From the NCBI RefSeq assembly GCF_024158915.1, contig NZ_JAMZGF010000009.1, positions 1-64,000 on the forward strand: a DNA stretch of 64,000 nt, written 5' to 3'. The DNA comes from Chryseobacterium sp. S0630. GTDB lineage: Bacteria; Bacteroidota; Bacteroidia; Flavobacteriales; Weeksellaceae. Made by a program: the position numbers and the translations under genes. Below are positions 10,306 through 54,204 of this stretch, one piece after another (position 1 is the stretch's first letter; every line of letters begins with the position of its first letter). The notes under the pieces were generated by a model that made no database searches, had not been told where the DNA came from, and was given only the letters and a program-made list of their open reading frames with translations.

Positions 10306-10325
10306 ATCATTAAAATTTTAAAACA

Positions 10326-10958: not shown

Positions 10959-10959
10959 G

Positions 10960-11952: not shown

Positions 11953-11968
11953 TCAAAAAAACAAAAAA

Positions 11969-12592: not shown

Positions 12593-12602
12593 AAACAGCT
12601 AT

Positions 12603-14170: not shown

Positions 14171-14191
14171 TTAACCTTTAAATTAAAATTA

Positions 14192-25800: not shown

Positions 25801-26894
25801 AACAATATTCTCGTTTTAATACATTTCTTGCGGGTGTTGATATGTATGATTTTGTGAAATATCAGATTGCAGGAATTACATCTCAAAGCACTTTTTCAGA
25901 AAGTGACTGTATAGAAATTATTTTGAATAGGGTAAAAGAAAATGGATATGATGAAAAATTGTTTGAATCCATTAACGAAGAATTTAAAGAGAATAAAAAC
26001 TATGGGTATGGGTATGGTCCTCAAATTAAATTCTATTCTGAAAAGTACCTTTGGCAGGCGTATTTTGAATTTATAGGATATTTATTTTTAGAGAATAGAC
26101 TTACATCAGAAGATAAGAACAGATACCGATGTTTAGATTTGTATTATGATCCTGGCTTTCCAAGACTACCCAAACGAAATCAGATTATAGCAGATTGCTT
26201 TTTCCCACCTAAAGAAGGAGATGTACAGGGATGGATAAATTCTGAAGATCAGAATTTTATTGATTCTTATTACATACACCACCTCTTTTCAGATGAAGAA
26301 TGGGTATTGATGTCTGCCTCTATTAGCCAAAAAGGAAAAGAAAATGATACACGGTTTGACCTATCTTTACATGCTTATCTAATTCCTAATGAAAAGGCTG
26401 CTAGCTTTGAAAAAAGTATTAAAAAATGCAATTATTATCCGACCGACAGCAATTCGCTGTACAATATTTATAGTGGAGAAATTAGCTGGAGTAACTTTCT
26501 AAAAAAACGAGAGAAATCTTATGGCGAGATTGATTTTAATATGGATGAGCTTGTTTGGAATTACAGATGGGCAAGCTGGTCTAATAATCGCTCACAAAAT
26601 CCAAACTTCCCATTTTTAAATCCTAAAATTTCTAATGCTGATAAATTGGAATTTAATCTACTAGACTTATCTTTTTATAACAATAAAAATGAACAAGTAA
26701 CTCAATTCATCTGGACTGAATCCGCTAAACTCTATTACATTAAAAGAACAGTAATTGAGAGACTTATTAAACAACAAAAGAAAGAATTAGTTTGGTATCA
26801 ATTTGCTTCCAAGTCTGGAAAATATGATGATAGTAGTTTGAACCCTGTTTACAAAGATTTACGTAAGTTTTTGCGTTATTCTGCTATTATATAA
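22881..26894 (+). CDS. PD-(D/E)xK-like nuclease fused to NACHT-type STAND NTPase
   Basis: A 1337-residue cytoplasmic protein. Residues 1-150 look like a restriction-endonuclease fold: E48 in PGSEF, D66 in AGDEIG, and Q71-x-K73 in WQVKWW. A helical linker follows. The NTPase has a Walker A at 371-379 (LSSAGYGKT), a NACHT-like Walker B at 445-454 (PIIIDGLNES) and a CRDRY sensor block near 484-488. About 800 residues of helical repeats end in a segment (EKYLWQAYFEFIGYL, about 1054-1068) that recalls other antiviral STAND proteins. By analogy with Avs and bNACHT proteins it should sense an invader component and trigger the nuclease. It is coupled by ATGA to the radical SAM gene, which is unusual for this class. 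Confidence 0.8.
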   Translation: MTNISWSQFDINQQAKDISFESFCFQLAYLRYHEFGYFDNFYNTPGSEFYLHLHTDCQELNLKAGDEIGWQVKWWYNTEDNTSLLKDRREQLINNFNTTLNEHAHIKLWIICTPSSFKESTFKDLKISLKAISPATEILHWNKETFKNFLSDKHSKFGAIFHHYFNTSFINFEIVKEYTERQIEYLHTKFDTDLYVPSDYDKEILYLLDYKKIFSDLEIKSTYIKDDIKDARRSIQRNDLESFLDPSYSKNILELIDFICKTLDEVITTLVSKLNIEKCKYLNDKIDIYLKTYRTYANKLNKTIQEDKWAKNKKLKQYDWQHQDIIEQINILHSHFVQIKEFEERIHSHRPIPTPLTKLLDLVFQKEVHILSSAGYGKTNIACNIAQNCIEKNIPAVLILGSTFRKLDFPQKIILESIGIDKDYSFKQFLQALNTLGFSKGVKIPIIIDGLNESNPYKDIWKTNIFDIIAEIKKLDHICLITTCRDRYINTIFEKENISDIKNKFVLEGLTEKQKRSAIPKYFEKYNIVPTSWNFNKDLFKHPLLLKIFSEANQESENINISIDNIFQSFDRYYDNIIKKITDDDIVLKHKINKRIAQLCEKLWNDNSRDVDIIDFATIISPESHKLYNTPADKILDEGLCLFQRNLDESDNERIQFAYDLVAGYLIASKILLAEVKTVKEIETRLYNIDIQNKLFSGDSAHSLAEDIMISLLYLLPSKYNIEFFEVFEDATALEICYRNIDYYIGNDSGQEKIRKICADLSKDHPTHHLLLNKLYENIYQKKVHGLSLFAISILLPLNQIEIDISWTEIIRKNNSATYNLLETINKNVQREALTSVDAEEYFYTSFISTVSSNQILRDLATENLYLIGRRVPEQLLSFCKKCYDFKDTNALESLTAALCGVLISIREKEITEKALIFLTNNFLTTWKNTHIGIIEYILTIIEFANNVFKLDYHKKLKFNSRSFRISTKFRKGKQYSRFNTFLAGVDMYDFVKYQIAGITSQSTFSESDCIEIILNRVKENGYDEKLFESINEEFKENKNYGYGYGPQIKFYSEKYLWQAYFEFIGYLFLENRLTSEDKNRYRCLDLYYDPGFPRLPKRNQIIADCFFPPKEGDVQGWINSEDQNFIDSYYIHHLFSDEEWVLMSASISQKGKENDTRFDLSLHAYLIPNEKAASFEKSIKKCNYYPTDSNSLYNIYSGEISWSNFLKKREKSYGEIDFNMDELVWNYRWASWSNNRSQNPNFPFLNPKISNADKLEFNLLDLSFYNNKNEQVTQFIWTESAKLYYIKRTVIERLIKQQKKELVWYQFASKSGKYDDSSLNPVYKDLRKFLRYSAII

Positions 26895-27213: not shown

Positions 27214-28239
27214 TTACAGGTTGTTTATATTGAACAAATTAAATATTTCATTTTTATATTGTGCATAAACACTTAGAGCTCTTTGTTCTAATAATGCTAG
27301 CCTATCTTTGTTAACCTCATCCATTTGAATAGCATCTTCCTCTTTTGCAAAAGTTGTATTCAATCGTAAATATCCAAAGTTATCAGGTTCTGCTTTATCG
27401 ATACCATTTTTCAAAAGGCTAATCAGATTTTCTGCTTGTTGAGATTGTCCCTGCATAAAAAGCTCAATAATTCTTTTCTTCTTACTAAGCACCCAATAAT
27501 AAATACCAAATCTTTTGGTTCTGTTTTCCTCTAGAAAAACACTTTGCCCAGTACCAATTGATAATAGGTTGATATCTTTAAGTTCCTTTTTAAAGGCTTT
27601 TTGAGCTTCAATAAGAGCTATAAGTGACGGATTATTTGCCCATACACCACCATCTACTTTGTACTTAAAATCCACATTATTTCCATCAAGATCTAAGTAA
27701 CTTTCAGAGGAATATGGATCAAAATAAGTTGGTGCAGATGATGTTGATAATGCTGCTTTAAATAATGGCAGATTAGGATCTCTCGTAAACCGTGGATGAT
27801 ACATACTTTTTAAAACAGAAGGACACCCCTTGTGTAAATCATAAACAGAAACAGCCACAGGAACTTTACAATCTTTCAATAGTGGAATTTTGCCTCCATG
27901 GTTTTCTTGAAAAATCTCAACAATTAATTTTTCTAAGGAATTTCTTTTATGTGTGGCTCCAAATAAGGAGCAAAACTTGTTTCTCCTGTTACCAAAAATT
28001 TTTTTCGCATTTTCAAAGTATAAATCTTTGATTCTAGAAGCAGGAATTCCGAGGGATAATGCCAATGCAAGAATGCCGCCGGTCGATGTCCCGAAAATAA
28101 GATTTACATTTTGATATATCTGCCAATCTTTCTTTCCTTTTTCCTTAAGTTCTTTTTCTATTTCTGCCAAAATAACTGCTGGAAAGATCCCTCTTATACC
28201 CCCTCCATCAATTGATAATACATTAAATTTTTCACTCAT
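27214..28239 (-). CDS. capV: CBASS effector: patatin-like phospholipase CapV
   Basis: This 341-residue protein has the patatin signature: oxyanion loop DGGGIRG (11-17), nucleophile elbow GTSTG with Ser52, and the dyad Asp196 in DGGVW. In CBASS, CapV is bound by the cyclic dinucleotide made by the CD-NTase and then degrades inner-membrane phospholipids, killing or arresting the infected cell. It is the third gene of a leftward operon, 15 bp after the E2-like gene. A TTG at 28245 would add two residues; the ATG at 28239 is preferred. Confidence 0.92.
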   Translation of the reverse strand: MSEKFNVLSIDGGGIRGIFPAVILAEIEKELKEKGKKDWQIYQNVNLIFGTSTGGILALALSLGIPASRIKDLYFENAKKIFGNRRNKFCSLFGATHKRNSLEKLIVEIFQENHGGKIPLLKDCKVPVAVSVYDLHKGCPSVLKSMYHPRFTRDPNLPLFKAALSTSSAPTYFDPYSSESYLDLDGNNVDFKYKVDGGVWANNPSLIALIEAQKAFKKELKDINLLSIGTGQSVFLEENRTKRFGIYYWVLSKKKRIIELFMQGQSQQAENLISLLKNGIDKAEPDNFGYLRLNTTFAKEEDAIQMDEVNKDRLALLEQRALSVYAQYKNEIFNLFNINNL

Positions 28240-28254
28240 AATCAATCCTACTAA

Positions 28255-28683
28255 CTATCTTTTATCACTTGTATGAACTATTCCCCCGCCAGTCCATTCT
28301 CCAGTCATTAACCAAATCTCGTAATGATACAGCCATTCAATTGCCCAGGGCATAATAGTATGTGAAATATACTGTGAACTTGTCCATTCTTTTGCTTTAG
28401 GATAATATAAACAAAGCTCCTGCTTGTCTTGATTATACACATGTTTTAGCCTTGATTCTTCCTCAGGTAACTCTAATGGTATAGGTTCTAAAACAAAAAC
28501 CTGGGGCACATCATTAAGTTTGTAAATTAGGCGTACTAAATATTCATCACCAAGCGGAGATGACTTAAGATATCCTTCCCATTTGATTTTATTTCGGCAA
28601 AGCATAGTTGTTTTTCCAAAGCTGTACTCCTTTTTTAATGATGCCAACTGCTCAATTACACTTAACTTATTCTTCTTTATCAT
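28255..28683 (-). CDS. Stand-alone E2-like conjugating protein of CBASS
   Basis: A 142-residue protein with the pattern of prokaryotic ubiquitin-conjugating E2 domains. The candidate catalytic Cys91 is in ELCLYYP after an HVYN block, followed by a W, the TIMPWAIEWL helix and the YEIWLMTGEW..GG end. CBASS type II-short loci carry an E2-only protein instead of the E1-E2 (Cap2) and JAB (Cap3) pair. There the E2 conjugates or primes the CD-NTase through its C-terminus and raises second-messenger output. It overlaps the CD-NTase gene by 17 bp. The family call is from motif recall. No E1 or JAB gene is visible, although an unrelated RadC-like JAB gene lies 11 kb away. Confidence 0.75.
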   Translation of the reverse strand: MIKKNKLSVIEQLASLKKEYSFGKTTMLCRNKIKWEGYLKSSPLGDEYLVRLIYKLNDVPQVFVLEPIPLELPEEESRLKHVYNQDKQELCLYYPKAKEWTSSQYISHTIMPWAIEWLYHYEIWLMTGEWTGGGIVHTSDKR

Positions 28684-29950
28684 TCCCAAAAAAATTGTGA
28701 GGCTTTATTTTAGAAACAGCAGAAAGTCCTGATGTAGCTGTTCCAATTACACCTAGATTACGATCTACGTGATTATTCCCACTTTCAGTTAACCATCTCA
28801 TTTTATTGCCAATATCCGAAAAAGTCTTTTTGACTGGTTCACTTCCAAAATAGCTTTGTAAAGACTCATTAAGCATTCTTTTATTTTCTGGAAATCGAAG
28901 ATTAAGAAAGTCCTCCTTAGCTTTATCCAGCCAATCATTAAAGAACTGCTCTCTTTTTGAGCCAGGAAGAGGCCAACGATCAGCAAAATTCTCAGTAGGG
29001 TTTACAGGATTGGAAATCCATTTTATATTTCTATACAGTTTTTCATCAAAACGATCTTCAATATAATTTCGCATATTACTGACAATATTTATAAGCGCAT
29101 CCGTAACATTATCTTCCCCATTGTATGCATGAGCAGCTAGAGTTGTTATGATACAGGATATAGGTTTTTCCTTTTTGTCTTCTTCGTTATAATCCTTAAA
29201 CATTATATCACGGTGCCTTTTAAGCAATTGTACCGCCCTTTGTAAGGGTAATCTATCCGCCTGATATTTAGGCGTAGGATTAACAGACTCATTTAGGGAA
29301 AACATTTTGCTCTTAAATCCTTTAATATCTTCTGCTATACTCATAAACCATTTCGCATAACCAAATGGATTACTCTGGAGCCAATCAGCAGGGTTTATTG
29401 AATAGTGGTACTCAGGCCTCTCATTATCTGTAATACTTAGTACCAGTTCATCAATATTCTGGTCTTTAAGATTACTATAAGCTTTCTCCAAAATTACAGA
29501 ATACCCCTTCGTATTAATAGCGGGCAAAATATCCATATGATAACGTTCATTCGGTACTCCATTTTCCCGATATCGCAATGTCCAGCATCTCCTACCTTCC
29601 TCATCTAGCAATGATTCATATTTTTTATGTTTAGACAATTGTCCCCCTACGAGTTCTTTAACATCTTTCTGTGTCCAATTTACCCTTTTTCCATTCAATT
29701 CACATACAATATCAAGATCCAGATCACCATCTGGATCAACAGTTTGAATAGTGGTCCCGATTATAAAAGAACCTTGTGGGCTAATTACTGGATTATATTC
29801 TGCCAGCTCCGAATCATCACCTGTTAGCCATGCCCCTACAGCTTTATAGCTTCTTACTGCTGCATCATGTTGACTTTCCGTAATACTGAGATTTTCGCCC
29901 AATGTATCTAAGATTTCTTCTAATTCGTTTTTTTCTCCTATTGTTATCAT
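28667..29950 (-). CDS. CBASS cGAS/DncV-like nucleotidyltransferase
   Basis: A protein of 427 residues counted from the ATG at 29950; an upstream in-frame extension to 30094 has no ATG near a ribosome site and is ignored. The catalytic motif is G60-S61 (QGSFIIGT) with the Asp pair D78/D80 in DGDLDLD and a third Asp at 140 (YHMDIL). CD-NTases make a cyclic oligonucleotide on phage infection; pairing with CapV suggests 3',3'-cGAMP or a related dinucleotide. It leads the operon CD-NTase, E2, CapV. I do not assign a clade. If the E2 works as in type II-short CBASS, the C-terminal residues near FFGNDKEE should matter. Confidence 0.88.
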   Translation of the reverse strand: MITIGEKNELEEILDTLGENLSITESQHDAAVRSYKAVGAWLTGDDSELAEYNPVISPQGSFIIGTTIQTVDPDGDLDLDIVCELNGKRVNWTQKDVKELVGGQLSKHKKYESLLDEEGRRCWTLRYRENGVPNERYHMDILPAINTKGYSVILEKAYSNLKDQNIDELVLSITDNERPEYHYSINPADWLQSNPFGYAKWFMSIAEDIKGFKSKMFSLNESVNPTPKYQADRLPLQRAVQLLKRHRDIMFKDYNEEDKKEKPISCIITTLAAHAYNGEDNVTDALINIVSNMRNYIEDRFDEKLYRNIKWISNPVNPTENFADRWPLPGSKREQFFNDWLDKAKEDFLNLRFPENKRMLNESLQSYFGSEPVKKTFSDIGNKMRWLTESGNNHVDRNLGVIGTATSGLSAVSKIKPHNFFGNDKEE

Positions 29951-30048
29951 GGTTATTATAAATTTCTTTTTAATATTATTGTGGTGTAGGATTAGATAAT
30001 TAAAATCACCTACATTCTCAAAAATAAAAAAAATTGGCTTAACGATGA

Positions 30049-30062
30049 TACGGGAACCCGTA
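30049..30062. promoter_or_regulatory. Inverted repeat upstream of the CBASS operon
   Basis: Arms tacggg and cccgta are separated by 2 bp, about 100 bp upstream of the CD-NTase ATG. It could be an operator half-site pair for a dimeric regulator or a weak hairpin. No regulator gene is linked to it directly. Confidence 0.35.
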
Positions 30063-30072
30063 ATAAAATATA

Positions 30073-30367
30073 TTAAATTGGTATACCACAACATATAGAG
30101 ATAACATAAGGTATGTTATCTTTATAAGTTACGGTTGACTTCAGTTTTTCATCTTGATCATAATATCTAACTTCCTGTATACTATCATCTTTAAAAAGAC
30201 ATTTCTTTGGTTAACTTACCATTTTCATCAAAAGAATTGCTTAAAACCAGTGATCCATTTTTATATGAATGAATTGATAAGTCAGAATATTCATCATTAA
30301 GTTGATAAGCCATCCATAGGTCTATAGGTATCAGTTTCTTTATTATATTAAACCAAAGAATAAGAAA
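30073..30367 (-). pseudogene. Frameshifted remnant with YwqK/MORN-like repeats
   Basis: On the minus strand a frame reads MAYQLNDEYSD..., then YKNGSLVLSNSFDENGKLTKEMSF before a stop. One base back, the frame continues with KDDSIQEVRYYDQDEKLKSTVTYKDN and stops at 30073. Repeated units of the form Y.NG.L....FDENGKL resemble MORN/YwqK-type antitoxin-like repeats. A one-base slip in a T run near 30193-30200 explains the break. No ATG-started N-terminus is found upstream, so this is a decayed fragment, not a working gene. Confidence 0.55.
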
Positions 30368-41809: not shown

Positions 41810-42304
41810 TTATCCATAGTAATATTCGGTAGTGACATCTCCGCTAAACGCCGGGTACGCCTCCTGTTTTTCCATATGCAATTCGAATAACCGGTCTCCG
41901 TTTTTACTTCCTCCCCGAATTTTTAAAGAATACCACCCATTTTCTAAAGATAAAGTAATACTGTTTTCTTCATTTATTGTGGTAATATCTTTTAAATAGC
42001 CAATTCCTACAATTTTCACTTCATTATTGGCCGTCTGGAATACCCAGCCTCTGGACTCTACCTCTACTTCATCATCATTCAGAATTTTTTCTTCATTTAC
42101 AGAAACCCGGAATGCATAATAGTCTTCCTCTACCCCTATGATTGGAATAGCAATTCCTGATTTTGTTATTTCATCCCCATGTTCGTTTTCTACAAAATAT
42201 TTTAAAATATTATTACCTTCAAGATGATTTTCTTCCAGATATTTTGCTAAAAGCTGTGGACTAAACACCACAAAACCTTTAAGTTCTGAGAATATTTTTT
42301 TCAT
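41810..42304 (-). CDS. Unknown protein, possible orphan immunity protein
   Basis: A 164-residue soluble protein with alternating beta-strand pattern and many acidic residues; no signal peptide. I do not recognise a family. It is the last gene of the leftward VgrG/Rhs set, 168 bp beyond the first immunity candidate, a place where spare immunity genes accumulate. That is the only hint to function. It could as well be an unrelated cytoplasmic protein. Confidence 0.5.
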   Translation of the reverse strand: MKKIFSELKGFVVFSPQLLAKYLEENHLEGNNILKYFVENEHGDEITKSGIAIPIIGVEEDYYAFRVSVNEEKILNDDEVEVESRGWVFQTANNEVKIVGIGYLKDITTINEENSITLSLENGWYSLKIRGGSKNGDRLFELHMEKQEAYPAFSGDVTTEYYYG

Positions 42305-42472: not shown

Positions 42473-43063
42473 TTAATTGACCCTGTTTTCTTCATTAAAT
42501 GTTATAAAATCATTTTGTGAAATATTGTCAAGAATATCTATCAGTCTATCTTCTGTAGCTATTTCCTTATCATAAAACTGTTCAAGATATTCTTCACTTT
42601 CTTCATCATCTCCATCTGGATTATCAGTAAAAAACTCTTCAGATTTCAGGTTATTGATTATATCTAAAGTATAATCAATTGTTGATTTTATCTTCGACTC
42701 CTCTCCTTTTACAATTTTGATGATATTGGTTGCAACCAAGACAATATTTACTGCAATGGCTGCCTGATAACTACTGTATTCATCATCTTCAGGAGCTAAA
42801 TTATCAAGAATAGTAAACTTCTCTACATCTGAATAACTCAGTTCATTACCCATAAAGATCTGGCTTAAAACATAGTCTGAAAACTCAGTAAGCTGCACAC
42901 TCCCATTCTTAAAACGCTGAGCATAATCATAATCATCATCTTTAATTTCTTCTTCAAAAAGTTGATACAGGTCTTTAATTCTTATAAGTGATGACAGATT
43001 AAATTTGATTTTATTTTCTTTACTAAGATTTAATGATTTTTCTTTAACTGACTTTTCGCTCAT
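42473..43063 (-). CDS. Candidate immunity protein for the Rhs toxin
   Basis: A 196-residue helical, strongly acidic cytoplasmic protein beginning 6 bp after the Rhs stop codon. Immunity genes sit directly after Rhs toxin tips, and an acidic protein suits neutralising a basic nucleic-acid-acting toxin. The central part (PEDDEYSSYQAAIAVNIVLVATNII) loosely recalls DUF416 proteins, which I could not verify. Function is inferred from context. Confidence 0.65.
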   Translation of the reverse strand: MSEKSVKEKSLNLSKENKIKFNLSSLIRIKDLYQLFEEEIKDDDYDYAQRFKNGSVQLTEFSDYVLSQIFMGNELSYSDVEKFTILDNLAPEDDEYSSYQAAIAVNIVLVATNIIKIVKGEESKIKSTIDYTLDIINNLKSEEFFTDNPDGDDEESEEYLEQFYDKEIATEDRLIDILDNISQNDFITFNEENRVN

Positions 43064-43069
43064 GTCTGT

Positions 43070-46000
43070 TTATTTATATTTTGGTTGATACTTTCCTTCA
43101 GGAATATGGTACTTCCCTCCTTCCTGTCTATTTTTACTAAACTTGCCGGTTGTTCCTTCTTCAAATTTAACATTATTATTGTTCATGTGATGCTCACAAT
43201 CAATACAAATTTTCGTGCTAGGTTCAATTTCCTTAATTCCTTTTTTAGCATTAATTAAAGCTTCTTCAGCGTGAACATTGTCTGCTTTGCTTTGTATCAC
43301 AGTGACTCCCATTTCTTTTGCCCATTCTTTTATCTGCCTAGGCACATATTTTTTACTTGAAGAAACATAGTAATTACCATTGCCATCTGTACCTACTGCT
43401 GTGACACTAAACCCTTTGGCATCACCAAGTGTACTGTGTGCATCCCTTACCAGCTCCTGTAGAAAGTTAACAGGATCATTATGCAGACCAAAAACATCTA
43501 CCCAGGTATTGGTGTCACTCACGAAAGCATACATTGTATCATTATTACCTAATAATCCAATAGGATCTTTTGATATATACATTCCAGAAGCAGCATCATA
43601 ATATCTCCATCTGTTATAATAATGTCCTTCTATTTCCTGATCTGCATACTGGCCAAGTTGCCTGAATGGAATAAAATAAAGATCTCCTGTACAGTTTCTC
43701 AAGTTTCCATAGATATCAAACTCTGCTTTCCAGATTAACTCTCCTTTTTCATTATAGGACTGTAGTGGTCTTCCGATATAATCTGAAATGATACTGAAGC
43801 GCTCTCCATTTATCATTTTTGCACAAGGAAAAAGTGCCCCTCTTTCATATACCCATGTAATAAGATTTTCTGTTTTTTCATCTTCTGTTTCCAATTCACC
43901 TGCCTCATTGATGTGTGTTTTAGGAATTTCTTCTATGTCATAGCTCCATTCATGTAAAAGAACATTGGCATCCCATACAAATCTGGTTATTTTATTTTCT
44001 ATGATTTTTGAAATTCTCCGTCCAAGTGCATCATATTCAAAACTTACTTCTTTACCATCAGGACGCTTTACTTTTGCCAGCATTCCGTTGGCATTCCAGA
44101 TGTACGCCCAATCTCCGGATTCCCATTCTGGATTCTGGATTTCTTCTGAAAGCACAGTATGTATATTGGGCAGGTCGGTTTCTTTCAGCATTTTCGGATT
44201 ACTTAACCAATCTGAAGCTATGGGTTTATAATAAGGGTGTACATGCTCTTGTTGTTCTGTATGCTCCTGCTTGGCATTGTTGATCGGCCGTTTACTTTTT
44301 AACAATAAATTTCCTTCTTCATCATAGTGATAAAACCAGTTTTTATCCCGCATCAGCTTTCCACCTTTGTCGTAGATTCGGTCTGTCTGGCGGACACTTT
44401 CATGTAAGCATCCTGTAGCATCCGGATTTTTATACTGTACCTCCCCGTTGGAATATTCTGCAGCCAGAAGGCTTCCGAAAGCATCGTAATCAAACCTTGT
44501 TCTTCCGCCCGTTACTCTATCCAGGGTATGCAGCAAACGGCTTCCTGCTGCCCAGTCATAATCTTTATGGAAAGCGGTATGAGTTTTATTCACTGTTACT
44601 TTCTGACTTACAGGCATTCCAATGTGATCAAATTCAAAGATACTTTCTACTCCACCAGTCATTTGACGGGAATACATCTGTCCGTTACGGCTGATCTCAA
44701 GATTCATTTCCCAGGGTAGAGCTGAACTTTGACTGGCAGCAGAAACTGTTATAAGCTGATCAAAATCATTATAGGAATAATCGATTTCTGCACCCAAACT
44801 ACTCTGTAAACTGATCAGATTACCATGATTATCGTATTCATATTGAATGGAATGCTCACCTTGCTGCTCGCTGGTGACTAATCCCAGTTTATTTCTCTGA
44901 AAGATAACGCTGCTGTTTTCATTATCTGCCCTTACCAATAACCCTGAAGTATTATACTGATAAGCTTCCCAGGTTCCGTCTGGATAGTGGCTCTGTGTCA
45001 ATCTTCCCGCCAGATCGTATTCATAAAAAATATCTTTTCCGTGAGGAGTTCTGCTTTGGGTTACCATTCCGTCTTTATCCCTTACAAAGAATTTTTTCTG
45101 ACCATCGAAGCCTGTTTCTCCAATGATTTCATTGTTATTATTTCTTTCAAAAGAATAGCTTTCTCCTTTTTCATTGGTAATACTCATTAAATTTTCATAA
45201 GCATCATATCCGAAGACTAAAGTTTCTTCTTTTTTATGGGTCTGTGCATTCCGTCGAATCTGACGTTTCAGGCTTCCCATCGGTGTATAACTCATCAACC
45301 ATTCTGCACGCCCGTCTGTAGCATATACAGGAAGATCATAAGCATCATAACTGAGTTTTAACGGCAATTGCCCGTGTTCATTCATTTCTACAACCCTTCC
45401 TATTTTATCTCTGTTCCAAAGAGTTTTGGTCAAAGGTTTTGGACTATAAATCAGAAGTCTACCATAAGCATCATACTTCCAGTACTGCTCCGCTCCAGCA
45501 CTATTCGTAAGCAGGATAAGCTGCCCTCTGTCATTATATCCATAATGTGTAATAATATCTCTTTTTAAACTTCTTTCAGGGATTTTCCCTCCCTCAGGAT
45601 ATTCATAGCTGATAGTTTCTTCTGCAGGATCGGTGTAGCTTAACAGTTTTCCATCTTGATCATAATGCCATATTTCCGAAGCTCCTGAAGGGGAAAAGCG
45701 GGCCGTAACCTGTCCGTATTCATTGTAATGATAATAATATTCTTCACCATCCGGAGTATGGAATATTGTAATATTTCCCATTTCATCATAAGTATACCCC
45801 TGAACCCGTCCTTCCGGTGTTCCCCACATCTTTAGTTCGTTGTGAGCAGTATAATCATACCAGGTTTCTCCACCTTCTCCATCTACTTTTTTATACACCA
45901 GAAAGTTTTCATCGTAATGATATTCCTCTGTTTTATTGTTTTGTTTCGGATAGATCACTTCTGTAAAGCCTTCCTCATCATGATAATGAAGTTTCCCTTC

Positions 46001-47863
46001 CATATATCCATCTACTCCTTTGGTATGTACTACCCTTCCTTTTTTATCATACTCCCACTGATAGCTCATTCCGTTTCGGTTGGTTCTTTTCACCACCTGA
46101 TTTTTTCTATCATATTCAAACATAATGGCCTTTTTGTGGACATCCCAAACATGAGTGAGATTACTCCGTTCATCATAACTGTAACGAACCTGCAGATCTC
46201 TTTGGTTTTTATAGCAATAATAAACTTCTGTTATCTTTTTATGTTCAGGGTGAATCGTTGTTTCTATACTCGTTTCAGTATTAACATCTTTTATCTTTTT
46301 TAGAACAATGCTACGACTTTCATACTCATATTCACGAATGGTTCCGTCACCATATTCGATCCTGGCTACTTTGTATATCACTCCTTCTGTAGCATGGTGA
46401 AAGCGTTTATAAGTGTAGATATCAGTACCTTTTCGGATAACCCAAATACTGCTGTCAGGTCTGTACTGCCAGATTTTGTGATCTCTGAAATAGGTCATTT
46501 CCTCTCCAATTTCTGGTGCAGGAATGAGCATTGCTATATTTTCATCGGGATGCATCCACCCTGCAAACTTATGATCTTCTTCAGGCAGAATAAACAGGTC
46601 ATGATTATTGAAAACACCATTTCCAAGAGGTCCAAAATCATAAGGCCTGTCACTGTGCCATATATTTTTCCAGGTTAAAGGTGTACTGCCCTGAATGATA
46701 AAATCATCCCATTCGAAAACCATTGCTCCTGTTGCAAAATTCACAGGTTCAAGTCCGTAATGACATAATTTCTTGGATAGGGCATTGGCAAATTTGAATT
46801 TATTGAAAGGAGCTTTTTTAAGGACACTGTTATTGAGTTTTTTTAAACCATTCGCTCCCAGTTTTCCTATTTTCTTGGTTAAACTTCTCATTAAAAACAT
46901 TCCGGCAAGACGCATGAGCATTTCTCCAGGGGTATAAGTATGAGGAACAAATGCTCCTCCCACCAATACAGGGCCGCCCGTATTGATCTGGATATACATG
47001 CTTGAAAAATTATTGTAGAAAGCAAAGTATGCCAACGGATTTTTCTTTGGTTTATCCGGCATGGCAGGCAGCATGGTCATTCCGAAAGGGAATCCCATAC
47101 AGGTTAATACCTGTTGAGGCTGATTTCCGCTCATTTTACTTCCCTGTGCCAGAACGGTCTGTGAACCGTAATACACTTCTCCTTCATGGGGAGCTTCCTG
47201 AGGAAAAGGAATGAGATACACCGGAATAAGCGATGTAACGTGTCTGAATGGAATAACCACTCCCATCACACTGGTTGTAGTGGTTGCTTTATGCCTTCCG
47301 TGAACATATATTGAGCCTCCCATCGGAATACTTTCCGGAAGAGAGGGCATCAGATTTCTTGCAAATTGCGGAACCGGAATCTTGATGGTAATATAATCCA
47401 TAATATCAAAAACAATCCCGATAAACGGATGCGGCAATGGCAAGGGAATAAACATGAATGAAGGTGGCGGCGGAATGAGAGTCCAATGGATATCAATGGC
47501 CAGCACGATATCAAAATGTTTACTTGTATGCTGAATGGCTGTGGAAGGCATTGCAGGGTTATTGACCTTAATCAGTTTTACTTTGCTTTCCGGAGCTGCG
47601 CGCTCTGCAGTCACCGCACTGTCTCCACCTCCGCCTCCGCTGCTTTTTGCGGGCTGATCAGGCTCTCCGCCCGCAATGGACTTCACCATAGAAACAGGAT
47701 TCAGGGAATCAAAATTATTTTTCATTCCGTTCTTCCAGCCCTGTGTGGTTTTATCCCAACTTACCGAAGTAACGTCTGCGTTTACCTTCCAGGAGCGGTC
47801 CGGGTTCATGTCCGGCTTTGCTACCTTGATCGGTTTTACTGTTTTTTTATTCAGATCTGCCAT
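43070..47863 (-). CDS. Rhs polymorphic toxin with deaminase-like C-terminus
   Basis: A 1597-residue Rhs protein. Residues about 100-330 resemble the PAAR-like/N-terminal module of T6SS Rhs effectors (IYVHGRHKA, GSQTVLAQGSKMSG). Many YD repeats form the Rhs cage (about 420-1400). The core ends near DPIGLLGNN. The last about 130 residues are the variable toxin: HAEEALINA with a CIDC motif 20 residues later gives the H-A-E / C-x-x-C zinc pattern of nucleic-acid deaminases. So the toxin probably deaminates cytosine or adenine in DNA or RNA of a rival cell. Delivery should use the VgrG encoded two genes upstream. Confidence 0.85.
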   Translation of the reverse strand: MADLNKKTVKPIKVAKPDMNPDRSWKVNADVTSVSWDKTTQGWKNGMKNNFDSLNPVSMVKSIAGGEPDQPAKSSGGGGGDSAVTAERAAPESKVKLIKVNNPAMPSTAIQHTSKHFDIVLAIDIHWTLIPPPPSFMFIPLPLPHPFIGIVFDIMDYITIKIPVPQFARNLMPSLPESIPMGGSIYVHGRHKATTTTSVMGVVIPFRHVTSLIPVYLIPFPQEAPHEGEVYYGSQTVLAQGSKMSGNQPQQVLTCMGFPFGMTMLPAMPDKPKKNPLAYFAFYNNFSSMYIQINTGGPVLVGGAFVPHTYTPGEMLMRLAGMFLMRSLTKKIGKLGANGLKKLNNSVLKKAPFNKFKFANALSKKLCHYGLEPVNFATGAMVFEWDDFIIQGSTPLTWKNIWHSDRPYDFGPLGNGVFNNHDLFILPEEDHKFAGWMHPDENIAMLIPAPEIGEEMTYFRDHKIWQYRPDSSIWVIRKGTDIYTYKRFHHATEGVIYKVARIEYGDGTIREYEYESRSIVLKKIKDVNTETSIETTIHPEHKKITEVYYCYKNQRDLQVRYSYDERSNLTHVWDVHKKAIMFEYDRKNQVVKRTNRNGMSYQWEYDKKGRVVHTKGVDGYMEGKLHYHDEEGFTEVIYPKQNNKTEEYHYDENFLVYKKVDGEGGETWYDYTAHNELKMWGTPEGRVQGYTYDEMGNITIFHTPDGEEYYYHYNEYGQVTARFSPSGASEIWHYDQDGKLLSYTDPAEETISYEYPEGGKIPERSLKRDIITHYGYNDRGQLILLTNSAGAEQYWKYDAYGRLLIYSPKPLTKTLWNRDKIGRVVEMNEHGQLPLKLSYDAYDLPVYATDGRAEWLMSYTPMGSLKRQIRRNAQTHKKEETLVFGYDAYENLMSITNEKGESYSFERNNNNEIIGETGFDGQKKFFVRDKDGMVTQSRTPHGKDIFYEYDLAGRLTQSHYPDGTWEAYQYNTSGLLVRADNENSSVIFQRNKLGLVTSEQQGEHSIQYEYDNHGNLISLQSSLGAEIDYSYNDFDQLITVSAASQSSALPWEMNLEISRNGQMYSRQMTGGVESIFEFDHIGMPVSQKVTVNKTHTAFHKDYDWAAGSRLLHTLDRVTGGRTRFDYDAFGSLLAAEYSNGEVQYKNPDATGCLHESVRQTDRIYDKGGKLMRDKNWFYHYDEEGNLLLKSKRPINNAKQEHTEQQEHVHPYYKPIASDWLSNPKMLKETDLPNIHTVLSEEIQNPEWESGDWAYIWNANGMLAKVKRPDGKEVSFEYDALGRRISKIIENKITRFVWDANVLLHEWSYDIEEIPKTHINEAGELETEDEKTENLITWVYERGALFPCAKMINGERFSIISDYIGRPLQSYNEKGELIWKAEFDIYGNLRNCTGDLYFIPFRQLGQYADQEIEGHYYNRWRYYDAASGMYISKDPIGLLGNNDTMYAFVSDTNTWVDVFGLHNDPVNFLQELVRDAHSTLGDAKGFSVTAVGTDGNGNYYVSSSKKYVPRQIKEWAKEMGVTVIQSKADNVHAEEALINAKKGIKEIEPSTKICIDCEHHMNNNNVKFEEGTTGKFSKNRQEGGKYHIPEGKYQPKYK

Positions 47864-47881: not shown

Positions 47882-49141
47882 TTACCCTGCTTTTGGTTTT
47901 TCTACACTCACCTTCCAGTCATCACCAAAATAAGTCTTCATTTCATTGTCCAGTATTCTTTTTTTATCAGTGTCGCCTTCATATTTTAGAATAAGCATTG
48001 AGGCTACAAACCTCAGACTGCTCAGTTCTCTTGCTGAAGAATCCATTACTTTTGCTATATCCAGACATTTTTCAAAATATCTGATCATTTTATCTTTTGT
48101 CAGAACCGTATCATTCAATGTAGCGATGATTCTGTAACACTCAATCGCCATTGCATATTCTCCTATTTTCTGAGCGGTTTCTGCAGCTTTTTCAAATATT
48201 TTTTCTGCTTTGGATTTTTTGGAGTTTCCTAACAGATAACTACCATAATTCATATACATCTGAACTGCTAAAGGGCTATCCGGTTCTACTTCTTCTAATA
48301 TTGTGCGGTAGGTATCTTCTGCCTTTTCTTTCTTCCTGTCTGCGGTATAAGCCTGTGTAAGCATAAAATAAGCAGAAATCTCTCCTTGTTTATTCTTTTG
48401 TTCTTTAGCAAGTTTCACTGCTGTTTTCAATGCATGCTCTGCTTCTTTGAATCTTTCTTTGCTTAAATGATTACTTGCGATAAGAATCTGCTGTTGAAAA
48501 TCCGTATCCGGGCTGTTCTTCTTGCGATTGGTATGAGCTGCCGTATTCTGCATTAACTGATGAATGTCTACTTCCACTCTGAAGCGATGTGCGGAAGAGA
48601 TATTGGGTAAGGTTCTGTAGGTATGATGTTCTGCCCAAACCAGTTTAATATCTTTATTTTCTGAGTTCTCACAGATCCTGCACCACTCTTTCACCCACAA
48701 AGAAAGTTCCTCGGTATCACTGATCCTGAGTGGAGCAATGTAGATGTAAATTTTAGAATCCTGAATATTAGGGAAGTTCTTCTTTAATTCCATTAAAGGA
48801 TAAAATGCCTTATACGCATCTGTTTTAAAGTTTTCTTCCGGGTTTTTCAGATCCCATTGGGGAATATTCTCTTCGCTTTTTTTCAACATCTCATAGAACT
48901 CAGTCCATTCATCCAATAAGGTTTGTCCGAAAGAGTTCATTCCGTTAAATTCCTGATAGTGGAGTAAAAAAACATCATCATTTTCTTCATCTTCAGAAAG
49001 CTTCGACTTGATAAATCCGTCAAAAAGATCCGTTTCATGTTTTTCTCCTATACAGATCAGCATAGGTTTTTCTTCATTCTTTGAAACGACTTTCTGCCAT
49101 TGTCTTTTTAACTTCACCAACTCCAAATCTACTGGATTCAT
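47882..49141 (-). CDS. TPR-containing T6SS effector adaptor candidate
   Basis: A 419-residue soluble protein. The N-terminal about 200 residues hold a conserved-looking globular domain (KPMLICIGEKHETDLFDGF); residues 215-395 are TPR-like helical repeats. It lies between vgrG (5 bp) and the rhs gene (18 bp), the usual slot for chaperone/adaptor proteins that load an Rhs effector onto VgrG. That role is inferred from position; no T6SS adaptor signature such as DUF4123 was seen. Confidence 0.65.
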   Translation of the reverse strand: MNPVDLELVKLKRQWQKVVSKNEEKPMLICIGEKHETDLFDGFIKSKLSEDEENDDVFLLHYQEFNGMNSFGQTLLDEWTEFYEMLKKSEENIPQWDLKNPEENFKTDAYKAFYPLMELKKNFPNIQDSKIYIYIAPLRISDTEELSLWVKEWCRICENSENKDIKLVWAEHHTYRTLPNISSAHRFRVEVDIHQLMQNTAAHTNRKKNSPDTDFQQQILIASNHLSKERFKEAEHALKTAVKLAKEQKNKQGEISAYFMLTQAYTADRKKEKAEDTYRTILEEVEPDSPLAVQMYMNYGSYLLGNSKKSKAEKIFEKAAETAQKIGEYAMAIECYRIIATLNDTVLTKDKMIRYFEKCLDIAKVMDSSARELSSLRFVASMLILKYEGDTDKKRILDNEMKTYFGDDWKVSVEKPKAG

Positions 49142-49146
49142 CTGTC

Positions 49147-51309
49147 TTAATTCAGTTTTACAGTTCCACTTACAATATTTGTTTCACTTCCGCCTCCAAC
49201 ATTGATTTTTCCTCCACTGCTAAGATTGGCTTCAGTATCACCCCTCATAGAAAGTGTATTGGTTCCGATATCGAGCGTATCAGATTTGATTCCGACACCT
49301 GAAGTAGGTTCACCGTCTTCAGGTCCTACTCCTACTCCGATACTCGTTGTTCCACCAACACCAATATTGACTCCCTGTACAAATATTTCTTTTCCTTTAA
49401 TCTGAATATTACCCTCTTTATCCATATAGATCGAACTGCTTCCACAATTCAGCGTAATGGAAATTTTGCTGTCTATCGTTATATTTCCGGCTCCATCCAG
49501 AAAAACAGAATTTTGATCTTTATCTTTTACGGTAATTCCACCAGCATCATCCAGACTCATCGTATGTCCGCTTTTACTGCTTAAGCTTTTAATATTATTT
49601 CCGGCTCCTCCGCCTCCGCCAACTCCTCCATGGAACATTCCTCCCATCACAAACGGGCGGTCAGGATGTTGATGGGCAAAATTGACCACTACCTGATCTC
49701 CTTCTTCAGGAATCGCCATGAAACCACGATTTTTACTCACTTTTTCGCTTCCTCCGCCATCCGGAGTCATTACTCTGATATATTCTGTTGTGGTAGAACC
49801 ATTTTGCCAGTCGAACTGTACTTTAACTCTACCCTGATTCAAAGGATCTACATTGGAAATTACTTTGGCAAATTGTGCATCTGCTTTTGGGGTATGGAAC
49901 TCCGGACGAGGGATAAATCCGGTATCAGAAGCTATTGCCTCAAAAGTTCCGGTATAATATCCTCTGGCATCTACCTCATGATACATATCTGTAATCATCA
50001 GTTTAGTAAAATAGGTCGTTTCGCTGCTTTCAGCTTTTCTCATTTCAATATCAGCAATACAGCCAGGGTAAAGAAATGGTACCGTGGTAATTCCTGAAAT
50101 AACAAATACTTCAGCGGCCTTACTTCCTGCAGTTCCTTTTTGAGAATTTTCCACATCCATGAAAGACACAGCTTTTATGGGAGCCACTCTTAACGATGGA
50201 GTTGTAAAAGTTTTTTCTGAAATTTCATACGCTCTTTTGGCTATATCTGAAGTATGATTAATTTTTGAATTTCCTGCTGTTAATTTTTCATTTTTACTGC
50301 TGTTATAGCCATAAAATGAAGGATTCACGTGCTGAGCTTTCATTTTTATCTTGACATCACTCACACTGCTTCCATACGTAAGCTTCACAGGTTTTTCCTG
50401 AGGTGGAAGCTTTCCGAAATGCAATACTTCACCATCGTAATAGAACTGTTCACCGTAGGCTTCTGCAATTCTGGCCAGATAGTTATAATGAGTCTCTTCA
50501 TATTGTGAGCTGTAAGAAACATTTCCATGGGCTGCATCTACCCTGAAATCAAAACTGTTTTGTCCGAGTCCTTCTTTGATCACCTGATCTGCAATACTGT
50601 TGAGACTGATTTCCTGTGCTCCGCCAAAACTTTGAATATGAGGAGCTGCATCCAAAAGAACCGTAGGGCTTGATCCTGTAAGAACAATATTTCCCAGACT
50701 TCCTTTTTCCTGGCTGAAACCTACTTCTGTGATCACTCCTACAAAATTTCTTTCCGGGCCGTCTTCAACGTCTTTATATCTGAAAATCACAGTAATTCTC
50801 TTTCCAAGAAAGTTTTGTGCTTCTTCAAGATTATGATTTTCTGAGCTTCCTAAGGTATCGTGGGCCAGCATCAAATCAAATTCATGATGTTTTACAGCAC
50901 TTTGTTTAAGCTGAAAATGCTTGAAATGTTTAATTACCTTTCCGTCAATTACAATTTCAAGTTTTACCACACGATTAATTCCTGCAACCTGATTTCCAGG
51001 AATTGTATTGGCATTATAAATTCCTGAAGTTGGCTGTTTGGACCATACTTTATCTTCTACCAGTGTGGGAGGGTTCGGTTGTTTAACCTGATTCATAAAC
51101 ATTTGAGAACCGTTTTGAACCAGACCTGTATACGCCTGAGCCTGAGCCATTTTTTCTGTAGCTTTCTTAACGGTTCCGCTCGATTTTTCCTGTACTTCCT
51201 GAGCAGCTTTGCTGACAGCCTGATCTGTCAATGTTTCTTTAATATTCTTTACAGCTGAAATTTTATCTTTGGAAACAGGCATTTTGGGTGAATGATCGTC
51301 CTGAAACAT
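49147..51309 (-). CDS. vgrG: VgrG/TssI spike protein (type VI secretion)
   Basis: A 720-residue VgrG with N-terminal gp27-like part (about 70-430; AEAYGEQFYYDGE block), gp5 OB fold (VISNVDPLNQGRVKVQFDWQ, about 460-560) and C-terminal beta-helix with repeated strands and Gly-rich turns. It forms the spike tip of the T6SS and carries Rhs effectors. It leads the leftward set vgrG, TPR adaptor, rhs, immunity. No sheath or membrane tss genes are in the window, so this is a satellite vgrG island. Confidence 0.9.
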   Translation of the reverse strand: MFQDDHSPKMPVSKDKISAVKNIKETLTDQAVSKAAQEVQEKSSGTVKKATEKMAQAQAYTGLVQNGSQMFMNQVKQPNPPTLVEDKVWSKQPTSGIYNANTIPGNQVAGINRVVKLEIVIDGKVIKHFKHFQLKQSAVKHHEFDLMLAHDTLGSSENHNLEEAQNFLGKRITVIFRYKDVEDGPERNFVGVITEVGFSQEKGSLGNIVLTGSSPTVLLDAAPHIQSFGGAQEISLNSIADQVIKEGLGQNSFDFRVDAAHGNVSYSSQYEETHYNYLARIAEAYGEQFYYDGEVLHFGKLPPQEKPVKLTYGSSVSDVKIKMKAQHVNPSFYGYNSSKNEKLTAGNSKINHTSDIAKRAYEISEKTFTTPSLRVAPIKAVSFMDVENSQKGTAGSKAAEVFVISGITTVPFLYPGCIADIEMRKAESSETTYFTKLMITDMYHEVDARGYYTGTFEAIASDTGFIPRPEFHTPKADAQFAKVISNVDPLNQGRVKVQFDWQNGSTTTEYIRVMTPDGGGSEKVSKNRGFMAIPEEGDQVVVNFAHQHPDRPFVMGGMFHGGVGGGGGAGNNIKSLSSKSGHTMSLDDAGGITVKDKDQNSVFLDGAGNITIDSKISITLNCGSSSIYMDKEGNIQIKGKEIFVQGVNIGVGGTTSIGVGVGPEDGEPTSGVGIKSDTLDIGTNTLSMRGDTEANLSSGGKINVGGGSETNIVSGTVKLN

Positions 51310-51862: not shown

Positions 51863-53626
51863 TTATTTTCTGATTTCTGATATTTTTTTCAGATAAACAT
51901 CGGTCTGATCCAAAAATTCCTGATCAGTCTGCTGTATTGTAATATGAGGAATAATCCCCTGTCCTTTTTTCTGATCAGGAAGGTTTTGAGCATCCTGAAT
52001 GACATGAACAATAGAAAATCCCGTCTGAATTCCTGTATTGGGTAGTTCATACACTAAGGGAAGATGTCCATTATGTTCATAATATCCGCCTACAGTTTCT
52101 TTTCCAATCACAACCGCATTGGTGTATGATTTAATAAGAGAGGCCAAATGTGAAGCTGCGGAAGCAACCCTCTGGTCTACAAGCAAATAAAGTTGTCCGT
52201 TAAAAGTTCTTTCATTAGGCATAATGGAAGAGTTTTTGTCATCTGCCCAATAATATTTTCCCTGAATACTTTTAGGGTAAAGCTGTTTCAAATAGGCATT
52301 CAGTCCATGCTTATCCTGTACACCGTTAGAAAGGAAAAGAGGTGTAATAACCAGTTTTTCTTCCAAAGGAACTTCATTGAATTGGGTATACGCATAGTGA
52401 CTATCCCTGAAAGGTCTTTGCGTAAGATAAGAGAATACTTTTTCATAAAGAGCTCCTGTGCCTCCTGTATTTCCTCTGAGATCAATAATCAGATTCTGTA
52501 TCTTCTCTTTTTCCAGAGTATCCATCATCTGCTCAAGAAAAGCACTGAATTTTTTATAGGCGGGATCTTCTTTTCCGGTTGCAAAATCAAACCCTCTCAA
52601 AGATAACCTATAAATATCTTCCCCTTCTTTGCTAAAACTATATTTTTCAGACAGCAATTTTTTGTCAAAAGCAAGCGAATATCTGGATTCCTGGAGTTTT
52701 TTAAAATTTTCCAATGGTATTCCCGGCATAGAAATTTCTTTTACAATTTCATTCCATTTATACTGAATCACATAGTTTTTATGGTTTCCGAATTCCATAT
52801 AAAATTTATCCAACATTCCTCTTTCAAAACCTGTTGTTTCCTTGTAAGGCATAGAAAATCCGTCAGAAAAATAGTATTGAGAAAACCTGCTGATTATTTC
52901 TTTTGCGGAAACCCCGTTGATAGAAAGAATTTCGCTCCCAAGAGGGATGGCATTATCTTTAGAATCCTGAAGAAGACGGCCATCAATATTCTTTAGTGTA
53001 ATGGGTAAATATTCTGGTTTCTGAGTGAGATAATACGAAGCATGGTTGGGTAGATCTGTATAATTGTGACAGCTTCCTTCAAATGCGGTAAGTTTGGCAA
53101 TGACTTTATAGAAATCAAAAATATTTTTACTGTTTCTGGCCTCTGCTTCCGCCTGCTGGTAGATGCTGTCTATCTGCTTTTTGTTTCTGTATACATAGAG
53201 TCCGGAATTTGCTTTTTCTCTGATAGAGCGGAATGTTCTTAGATCTTCTACAAACTGATCGGAACTGAACTGGCCATTCAGAACCGTTACACTTTTGGAC
53301 TCTGTAATAGAGACTTTCGCGGTTTTACTTTTTTCAAGATAAGATTTAGCCCATATTTTCACTTCATATTTTTTTCCTTTTTCAGGAGTGAAATACAAGC
53401 GTTCAATACTTTTTATTCCTCTCGAATCATCCTGCTCTCTCATTTTTTTTCCATCTGTGAACAAAGCAATTCCCAGATTAGCATCAACTGACTGTACTGA
53501 GATCCACGATGATTTACGAGACTGTGGTAAATATTTCAGGGTGTCTCCCGGTTTAAGATCCAAATTGGTCTGTGCATATACATTGTTTAAGAATAACAAA
53601 AGAGGGAGTATAAGAGGTCTGGCCAT
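51863..53626 (-). CDS. S41-family (C-terminal processing) peptidase
   Basis: A 587-residue secreted protein: signal peptide ending NVYAQ, an N-terminal accessory region, and an S41 peptidase domain. The conserved LRGNTGGTGALY block and the catalytic-site segment DQRVASAASHLASLIK (Ser in ASAAS, Lys further on) are visible. It is probably a periplasmic or exported serine protease with a weak PDZ-like segment near 200-260 (IPLGSEILSINGVSAKE). The substrate is unknown. It stands alone, leftward, followed by a strong terminator. Confidence 0.85.
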   Translation of the reverse strand: MARPLILPLLLFLNNVYAQTNLDLKPGDTLKYLPQSRKSSWISVQSVDANLGIALFTDGKKMREQDDSRGIKSIERLYFTPEKGKKYEVKIWAKSYLEKSKTAKVSITESKSVTVLNGQFSSDQFVEDLRTFRSIREKANSGLYVYRNKKQIDSIYQQAEAEARNSKNIFDFYKVIAKLTAFEGSCHNYTDLPNHASYYLTQKPEYLPITLKNIDGRLLQDSKDNAIPLGSEILSINGVSAKEIISRFSQYYFSDGFSMPYKETTGFERGMLDKFYMEFGNHKNYVIQYKWNEIVKEISMPGIPLENFKKLQESRYSLAFDKKLLSEKYSFSKEGEDIYRLSLRGFDFATGKEDPAYKKFSAFLEQMMDTLEKEKIQNLIIDLRGNTGGTGALYEKVFSYLTQRPFRDSHYAYTQFNEVPLEEKLVITPLFLSNGVQDKHGLNAYLKQLYPKSIQGKYYWADDKNSSIMPNERTFNGQLYLLVDQRVASAASHLASLIKSYTNAVVIGKETVGGYYEHNGHLPLVYELPNTGIQTGFSIVHVIQDAQNLPDQKKGQGIIPHITIQQTDQEFLDQTDVYLKKISEIRK

Positions 53627-53685
53627 TATTATTTTTTGAATGGGCTAATATACAAATTAACCTCAACCGATTGAACATTCTTCAA

Positions 53686-54204
53686 TTATTCCCTTTGAAC
53701 ATTAACTTTCACACTGATCTCCTGCACTTCCTCTGCAGAAAGTCCATAAATCTGAGGTGTTTTTACATCCAAAAGATTCAGATAGATATATAATTCTGCC
53801 CTGTGGTGGATTTCATGTTCTATCATAGCACGAAGCCATTTCCATACGGAAATTTCACTGTTGGCTGGAGTAAGACATTTCCTTGTGAGATCTTCATCTG
53901 AAAGACTGCAAATAATTTCCAGAGTCTGTCTGTGCATTTCATTGAAAAACTTAACTGTATTTTCATAACCGTCGGCAAGATCCTTACCACATCCGGGATA
54001 AGCACTTCTCCTTCCCATAATGGTTTCTCCATACATATACCGTTCAATGGCAGCAATGTGCCTTATCTGATCGCCAATAGTAAATTTCCCAGGTTTATAA
54101 GAAAAATCAATATGTTCAGGAGGAACAACTTCAATAATACGATTGGTTCTTTCTCTTATTTTCCCATAATACTCCAGGAATGAGTGTACAGTTTTTATTT
54201 CCAT
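53686..54204 (-). CDS. DinB-family protein
   Basis: A 172-residue four-helix-bundle protein of the DinB/YfiT superfamily. Typical blocks are IGDQIRHIAAIERYMYGE and the EHEIHHRAELYIYL helix with His residues that bind metal in this family. Members include thiol-dependent transferases and stress-induced proteins; the exact reaction cannot be read from sequence. No partner gene is close. Confidence 0.85.
   Translation of the reverse strand: MEIKTVHSFLEYYGKIRERTNRIIEVVPPEHIDFSYKPGKFTIGDQIRHIAAIERYMYGETIMGRRSAYPGCGKDLADGYENTVKFFNEMHRQTLEIICSLSDEDLTRKCLTPANSEISVWKWLRAMIEHEIHHRAELYIYLNLLDVKTPQIYGLSAEEVQEISVKVNVQRE

What the first reader, a model, noticed from the sequence alone, without database searches (positions are those of the whole stretch)
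42473..43500. Rhs tip with HAE/CxxC deaminase motif and adjacent acidic immunity candidate
The variable C-terminal about 130 residues carry the zinc-deaminase pattern, and a 196-residue acidic protein follows after 6 bp. Bacterial deaminase toxins can mutate DNA or RNA and are of wide interest; the subfamily here is not obvious.
Basis: partly seen in the sequence, partly recalled or inferred. Interest (0 to 1): 0.5.

Follow-up and report, generated by a model that had tools for sequence, protein, structure and literature searches.

The report
Unclassified deaminase-like tip on Rhs weapon
A Chryseobacterium bacterium carries an injected weapon protein whose swappable tip looks like a base-changing enzyme of no recognised subfamily, next to a gene that probably protects its owner.

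Summary
The last 137 residues of a 1597-aa Rhs protein (tip 43073-43483, minus strand) carry HAE (residues 71-73) and CIDC (93-96); a 196-aa protein of pI 4.2 starts 6 bp after the Rhs stop. The motif spacing arises in 85 of 1,000,000 shuffles of the tip. VgrG, a TPR protein, Rhs, tip and 196-aa gene form a module at one chromosomal site; among 28 Rhs genes seen at that site I count 13 kinds of tip. This tip is in 5 of 173 genus genomes and was not found elsewhere in what was searched. It changes far less in protein sequence than its cage or the 196-aa gene. No Pfam, NCBIfam or PDB sequence match was significant. AlphaFold models were too weak (pLDDT 55 and 41) to prove a fold. Best reading: a T6SS-delivered antibacterial deaminase of an undescribed subfamily. 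Fold, catalysis, target and the protective role of the 196-aa protein are inferred, not shown.

The parts
43073..43483 (-). Rhs tip, 137 aa, candidate zinc deaminase (stop codon at 43070-43072)
   Evidence: boundary behind VDVFGL shown by tips of other kinds following the same core motif in related loci
43262..43273 (-). codons for H71-A72-E73-E74
43196..43207 (-). codons for C93-I94-D95-C96
43484..47863 (-). Rhs cage (YD repeats, DUF6531, Rhs-associated core)
   Evidence: Pfam PF05593 E 1.5e-46 and PF20148 E 2.2e-9; NCBIfam TIGR03696 E 8e-10
42473..43063 (-). 196-aa acidic protein, candidate immunity protein
   Evidence: follows this tip in 5 of 5 genomes; predicted mostly helical at low confidence
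41810..42304 (-). 164-aa protein at the fixed edge of the site, present with many other tips and without Rhs; not specific to this tip
   Evidence: 52 of 171 genus genomes
47882..49141 (-). TPR protein of the module
   Evidence: TPR_12, E 6e-10; conserved in 6 of 6 Rhs-bearing long stretches
49147..51309 (-). VgrG-type spike protein
   Evidence: PF04717 E 7.8e-16, PF05954 E 4.5e-11; conserved in 6 of 6 Rhs-bearing long stretches
51863..54204 (-). S41 peptidase and DinB-like genes that border the module on its other side
   Evidence: in L140 the S41 and 164-aa genes lie about 330 bp apart without the module

Best explanation
An antibacterial, contact-delivered Rhs effector of a Bacteroidota type VI secretion system. 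The Rhs cage rides on the neighbouring VgrG, is cut behind VDVFGL and releases a 137-aa tip in the recipient. The tip is a small zinc-dependent deaminase, most likely of the C-terminal-hairpin division because only 41 residues follow the CxxC: H71, C93 and C96 hold zinc, E73 activates water, and a base is deaminated, most likely cytosine in nucleic acid. It belongs to a subfamily that the family models searched do not describe. The 196-aa acidic, probably helical protein blocks it in the owner and its kin. Shown: gene order, motif, constraint, cassette swapping, VgrG and TssD/Hcp genes. Inferred: deaminase fold, catalysis, target, cleavage, delivery, neutralisation.
For: HAE...CxxC spacing rare by chance and unchanged in 5 genomes despite near-saturated silent sites against G270. 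Tip dN/dS 0 to 0.05 in the 5 of 6 pairs where it could be computed, against 0.09-0.16 for the cage and 0.09-0.23 for the 196-aa gene. In 10 of 10 pairs the tip has relatively fewer amino-acid changes than the 196-aa gene (Fisher p 8e-6 to 0.045) and than 400 codons of cage (p 6e-6 to 0.039); the pairs are not independent. Weak models put a helix start at or beside H71 and C96, and strand-strand before the HAE helix. Tip and 196-aa gene are exchanged as a unit within an otherwise syntenic VgrG-TPR-Rhs module. VgrG next door, five TssD/Hcp genes in the genome. SsdA, a proven deaminase toxin, likewise has an insertion between strand 2 and the next helix and an all-helical immunity protein (PMC7901873 section 9).
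Against: No deaminase family matches by hmmscan, and the PF00383 deaminase profile finds 5 genes in the genome but not this tip. The tip model has pLDDT 54.8, and everything from residue 90 on, including both cysteines, is below 50; fold searches show no deaminase above chance. In the second model strand 83-88 is absent. No solved-structure sequence match. The 196-aa protein matches no known immunity family.
Confidence: 0.62

Rival explanations
1. The tip is a zinc-binding toxin of another fold (a nuclease or other hydrolase) in which His, Glu and the Cys pair bind zinc but no base is deaminated.
For: No family or fold match to deaminases; many other tips at this site look like nucleases by eye.
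Against: Both motifs occur together at deaminase-like spacing; weak models place them at helix starts with two strands before the HAE helix.
Confidence: 0.2
2. The tip is a true deaminase but its target is RNA or free nucleotides and nucleosides, so it kills by blocking translation or draining a pool and does not mutate DNA.
For: Nothing here fixes the substrate; the deaminase superfamily includes nucleotide- and RNA-directed members (PMC7901873 introduction passage).
Against: The three toxin members tested in PMC7901873 (DddA, SsdA and one BaDTF3 protein) act on DNA (passages).
Confidence: 0.12
3. The immunity protein is the 164-aa product, and the 196-aa protein has another role.
For: It lies in the same direction further downstream and is acidic, pI 4.64.
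Against: The 164-aa gene is in 52 of 171 genus genomes, beside many other tips and, in 16 of 49 fetched loci, beside the S41 gene with no Rhs gene found.
Confidence: 0.04
4. The tip is a decaying or inert remnant.
For: It was found in one genus only.
Against: Between window and G233 no amino-acid change against about 23 silent ones; the frame is intact in 5 of 5 genomes.
Confidence: 0.02

Closest known systems
sce3516-like toxin deaminases (Zhang et al. 2012, PMC3482391; passages and section 30)
   Same: HAE signature, CxxC, short C-terminal-hairpin type, at the end of Rhs and other polymorphic toxins, T6SS among the delivery routes.
   Different: Listed there with SUKH immunity and from actinobacteria and proteobacteria; no sequence of that family was in hand, so kinship is untested.
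SsdA / BaDTF2 (DYW-like deaminase toxins; PMC7901873 section 9)
   Same: Compact toxin deaminase, insertion between strand 2 and the following helix, all-helical immunity protein.
   Different: The SGW motif of BaDTF2, and the PG, DYW and CxC motifs of DYW proteins, are absent from the tip; no Pfam match.
DddA / BaDTF1 (SCP1.201-like; PMC7901873 passages)
   Same: T6SS-delivered toxin with zinc-deaminase residues and an adjacent immunity gene.
   Different: No Pfam match of the tip to an SCP1.201-like or other deaminase family.
RhsA of Pseudomonas protegens (PMC8765631, passages)
   Same: VgrG-linked Rhs cage with a C-terminal aspartyl-protease region and a cut-off toxin. Its catalytic aspartates (D1324, D1346) are 22 apart; the Asp of KDPIGL and that of WVDVFGL here are 23 apart (counted by eye).
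   Different: No Pfam PAAR match in the Rhs protein here; a TPR gene, not an Eag chaperone gene, lies between VgrG and Rhs.

Membership tests
Deaminase superfamily | [HC]xE and CxxC zinc motifs in this order | tested here: met
   H71-A-E73 and C93-x-x-C96; identical in 5 genomes
Deaminase superfamily | Core fold with the motifs at the starts of two helices | tested here: inconclusive
   Secondary structure fits in part, but pLDDT 54.8 and 40.7; fold searches gave nothing above chance
Deaminase superfamily | Match to a curated deaminase profile | tested here: not met
   No deaminase family among Pfam hits at E up to 10, nor NCBIfam at E up to 1; PF00383 finds 5 other genes in the genome, not this one
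Deaminase superfamily | Deamination of a base | not testable with these tools
   Needs a biochemical or mutation assay
BaDTF2 (SsdA-like) | SGW motif in the insertion after strand 2 | tested here: not met
   No SGW in the tip; motif named in PMC7901873 section 9
DYW proteins | C-terminal DYW, CxC and PG motifs | tested here: not met
   None in the tip; motifs named in PMC7901873 section 9
sce3516-like deaminases | HAE signature with C-terminal hairpin | tested here: inconclusive
   HAE present; only 41 residues follow C96, but the hairpin is not modelled (pLDDT below 50 from residue 90)
sce3516-like deaminases | Sequence kinship to the family | not tested
   No sequence of the family was in hand
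T6SS-linked Rhs polymorphic toxin | Rhs repeats and Rhs-associated core before a variable tip | tested here: met
   13 kinds of tip (grouped by eye) behind related Rhs proteins at the same site
T6SS-linked Rhs polymorphic toxin | VgrG beside it and T6SS genes in the genome | tested here: met
   VgrG 49147-51309; five TssD/Hcp genes; other T6SS parts not searched
T6SS-linked Rhs polymorphic toxin | Secretion, self-cleavage and toxicity | not testable with these tools
   Needs experiments
DUF416 (YjaG) for the 196-aa protein | Profile similarity to DUF416 | tested here: inconclusive
   No Pfam match; hhalign probability 0.3% and 0.7% over 24-25 columns, with only five close rows in the query

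The most novel reading that the evidence does not exclude
The tip founds a new deaminase subfamily, found so far only in Chryseobacterium, with a helix-strand insertion before the catalytic helix, a helical immunity protein of no known family, and a substrate or sequence preference unlike DddA and SsdA; it would add a 137-aa natural scaffold for base-changing enzymes.
Probability: 0.4. Interest if true: 0.6.

Novelty: new variant of a known kind. Interest (0 to 1): 0.43.

Why it matters
Bacterial deaminase toxins can mutate cells that survive them and have become base-editing tools (PMC7901873 and other papers seen as listings). An unclassified compact member may bring a new substrate. Here tip, likely partner and swap site are delimited, so toxicity, rescue and mutation spectrum can be tested directly. 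The slowly changing tip beside a faster changing immunity candidate also poses a testable question: do immunity proteins that are only 62% alike (window and G270) still protect against tips that are 88% alike?

Tried and rejected
Distant relatives. Protein searches of plasmids and phages gave no match: the tip with its last core residues in plasmids at E up to 0.01 and phages at E up to 1, an 89-aa core in plasmids at E up to 10, the tip in phages at E up to 10, the 196-aa protein in plasmids at E up to 0.01. Viral-contig scans gave no relative; a motif pattern there gave 3 stretches whose frames I judged unrelated by eye. The genome-contig scan used two short peptide patterns, so it reaches close relatives only: 130 stretches, 3 relatives. 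The family search with the tip listed 5 of 296 genomes, one of them weak (G171). The genus search listed 22 of 173 at E up to 0.1: 5 at E 6e-85 or better, and 17 at E 4e-4 to 0.09 that I dropped as chance. Of the 17 I read only L005, whose listed long frame shows no HAE/CxxC; the other 16 were not examined. The phylum profile search listed 6 of 395: the window and 5 weak partial hits, not examined. The 196-aa protein gave 2 of 197 family genomes (window and G142), and its profile 3 of 395: itself and two weak partial hits in frames of 717 and 761 aa, not examined, taken as chance.

Structure. Tip alone pLDDT 54.8; this job used 4 of the 5 known tips, because the fold tool's text does not name the tool that brought in G300. 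Foldseek: 0 matches at E <= 0.001, best E 0.023; one cytidine deaminase chain at rank 25 of the 50 rows shown, E 0.83. VIA-align: best row Z 5.1, no deaminase among the 50 rows shown. Tip and 196-aa protein folded as one chain: pLDDT 40.7, used only for secondary structure.

Families. PF14440: 1 of 148 phylum genomes at E <= 0.001, 0 over cut-off. PF14424: 4 of 198 at E <= 0.01, 0 over cut-off. Neither found the window's tip. DUF416 was suspected by eye for the 196-aa protein and not supported; its family search found 1 weak hit in 22 relatives, below cut-off. PHROGs: nothing below E 0.02 for tip, 196-aa and 164-aa proteins. A second tip kind (L036) matched PF14427 at E 0.031, below cut-off, and no solved structure better than E 1.1. 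An E. coli-strain accession was absent. The script failed to orient the loci; it was redone.

Literature. Searches; in the listings shown I saw no paper on this tip. Apart from PMC3482391, PMC7901873 and PMC8765631 (passages or sections), papers were seen only as listings.

Full report
What is there. On the minus strand, a DinB-like gene (53686-54204) and an S41 peptidase gene (51863-53626) are followed by VgrG (49147-51309), a TPR protein (47882-49141), a 1597-aa Rhs protein (43070-47863), a 196-aa acidic protein (42473-43063) and a 164-aa protein (41810-42304). The Rhs core is recognised by Pfam and NCBIfam. The 137 residues after VDVFGL are not. They hold HAEE and CIDC, with 19 residues between HAE and the first Cys (counted by eye).

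Is it more than chance? Shuffling the tip gives HAE-x(15-40)-CxxC in 85 of 1,000,000 trials, and the looser pattern occurs at one place only in the window's 68 open frames of 100 aa or more. In the five genomes with this tip the motif residues are identical. Against G270 the tip's silent sites are close to saturation (pS 0.66-0.75), so this reflects selection on the protein. Between window and G233 there are about 23 silent changes and no amino-acid change in 137 codons. In 10 of 10 pairs the tip has relatively fewer amino-acid changes than the 196-aa gene (Fisher p 8e-6 to 0.045) and than 400 codons of the cage (p 6e-6 to 0.039); pairs share branches and are not independent (four genomes).

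Site and swapping. The 164-aa gene is in 52 of 171 genus genomes. I fetched the 8 kb upstream in 49 of the 51 genomes other than the window's, leaving out G314 and G319, whose matches are only about 30% identical; for G072 the contig allowed only 1.3 kb. By motif search in a script an Rhs gene is there in 27 of 49, the S41 gene without Rhs in 16 of 49, and neither was found in 6 of 49. With the window this makes 28 Rhs genes, which I group by eye into 13 kinds of tip: this tip 5 times, others that look like GIY-YIG, NucA-like or restriction-type nucleases, two more kinds with HSE...PPC patterns, and several of unknown kind. Only three of the other kinds were scanned against Pfam. Longer stretches from seven genomes show DinB, VgrG, TPR and Rhs in the same order in 6 of 6 Rhs-bearing ones; the S41 gene has no match in three of these (L135, L136, L139). 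In two genomes with other tips (L138, L139) VgrG is 99% and the 164-aa protein 96-97% identical to the window, while tip and 196-aa gene have no match at E 1e-10. In L140 the S41 and 164-aa genes lie about 330 bp apart with nothing of the module between. So the 196-aa gene travels with this tip, and the 164-aa gene belongs to the site.

How widespread. By tblastn the tip is in 5 of 173 genus genomes. A profile search of 395 phylum genomes found no further convincing match, nor did the genome contigs pattern scan beyond three of the same species, nor the plasmid, phage and viral-contig searches. These searches are limited by a query of five sequences that are 87-99% alike.

What fold. AlphaFold with four sequences gave helix 4-19, strands 27-33 and 38-42, helix 49-57, strand 60-64, helix 72-78 beginning beside H71, strand 83-88 and helix 96-103 beginning at C96; mean pLDDT 54.8, and below 50 from residue 90 on, so the CxxC helix is poorly supported. 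The joint model repeated these elements at lower confidence except strand 83-88. The order strand, strand, HAE helix, strand, CxxC helix is that of the deaminase core (recalled, and in outline in PMC7901873 section 9); the helix-strand between strand 2 and the HAE helix would be an insertion. SsdA also has an insertion at this place, with an SGW motif that is absent here. Fold searches were inconclusive. I therefore call the tip deaminase-like by motif and predicted layout, not by proven fold.

How it most likely works. Reported for relatives: Rhs effectors ride on VgrG, form a cage and cut off their tip (PMC8765631, passages); DddA, SsdA and a BaDTF3 member are toxic and cause C-to-T changes in DNA (PMC7901873, passages and section 9). 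The genome has five TssD/Hcp genes, so a Bacteroidota-type T6SS is likely present; its other parts were not searched. By inference the tip is released behind VDVFGL in the recipient, binds zinc through H71, C93 and C96 and uses E73, and the acidic (pI 4.2), probably helical 196-aa protein covers the basic (pI 8.5) tip in the owner. The substrate is open.

Comparison with the known. It is a T6SS-linked Rhs polymorphic toxin by each feature that could be tested. It is not a recognised member of any deaminase family tested. By its description the sce3516-like clade (HAE, C-terminal hairpin, T6SS and RHS) is nearest, but it is listed with SUKH immunity and from other phyla, and its sequences were not in hand (PMC3482391). 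The 196-aa protein matches no family; a DUF416 likeness noticed by eye was not supported by profile comparison.

Verdict. A real, intact, cassette-borne toxin tip with a deaminase signature and no assigned subfamily: a new variant of a known kind, of moderate interest, whose decisive tests are simple.

Noticed in passing
window 27214-28245 and 28667-30094 (-): Patatin-like phospholipase gene beside a CD-NTase-like nucleotidyltransferase gene, which looks like a CBASS defence pair (by eye).
   Followed up: no
window 7795-15091 (+): Run of conjugation genes resembling TraG, TraI-TraN of Bacteroidota conjugative transposons (by eye).
   Followed up: no
window 704-6967 (-) and 21835-26894 (+): A 2087-aa P-loop protein, and a 1337-aa P-loop protein next to a radical-SAM-like gene; both look like large defence-type NTPases (by eye).
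   Followed up: no
L085, L091, L104, L099: Two other tip kinds at the same site carry HSE...PPC patterns and may be further deaminase-like toxins; one matches PF14427 weakly (E 0.031, below cut-off).
   Followed up: partly
window 42473-43483 against G233, G142, G270, G300: The tip changes much more slowly in protein sequence than its immunity candidate (for example 100% against 86% identity to G233), the reverse of what one might expect for a toxin under diversifying selection.
   Followed up: partly
L041, L044, L046-L049, L052, L054, L056: Several loci carry two or more small genes between Rhs and the 164-aa gene, some of them shared between loci with different tips; these may be orphan immunity genes left by earlier cassettes.
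   Followed up: no
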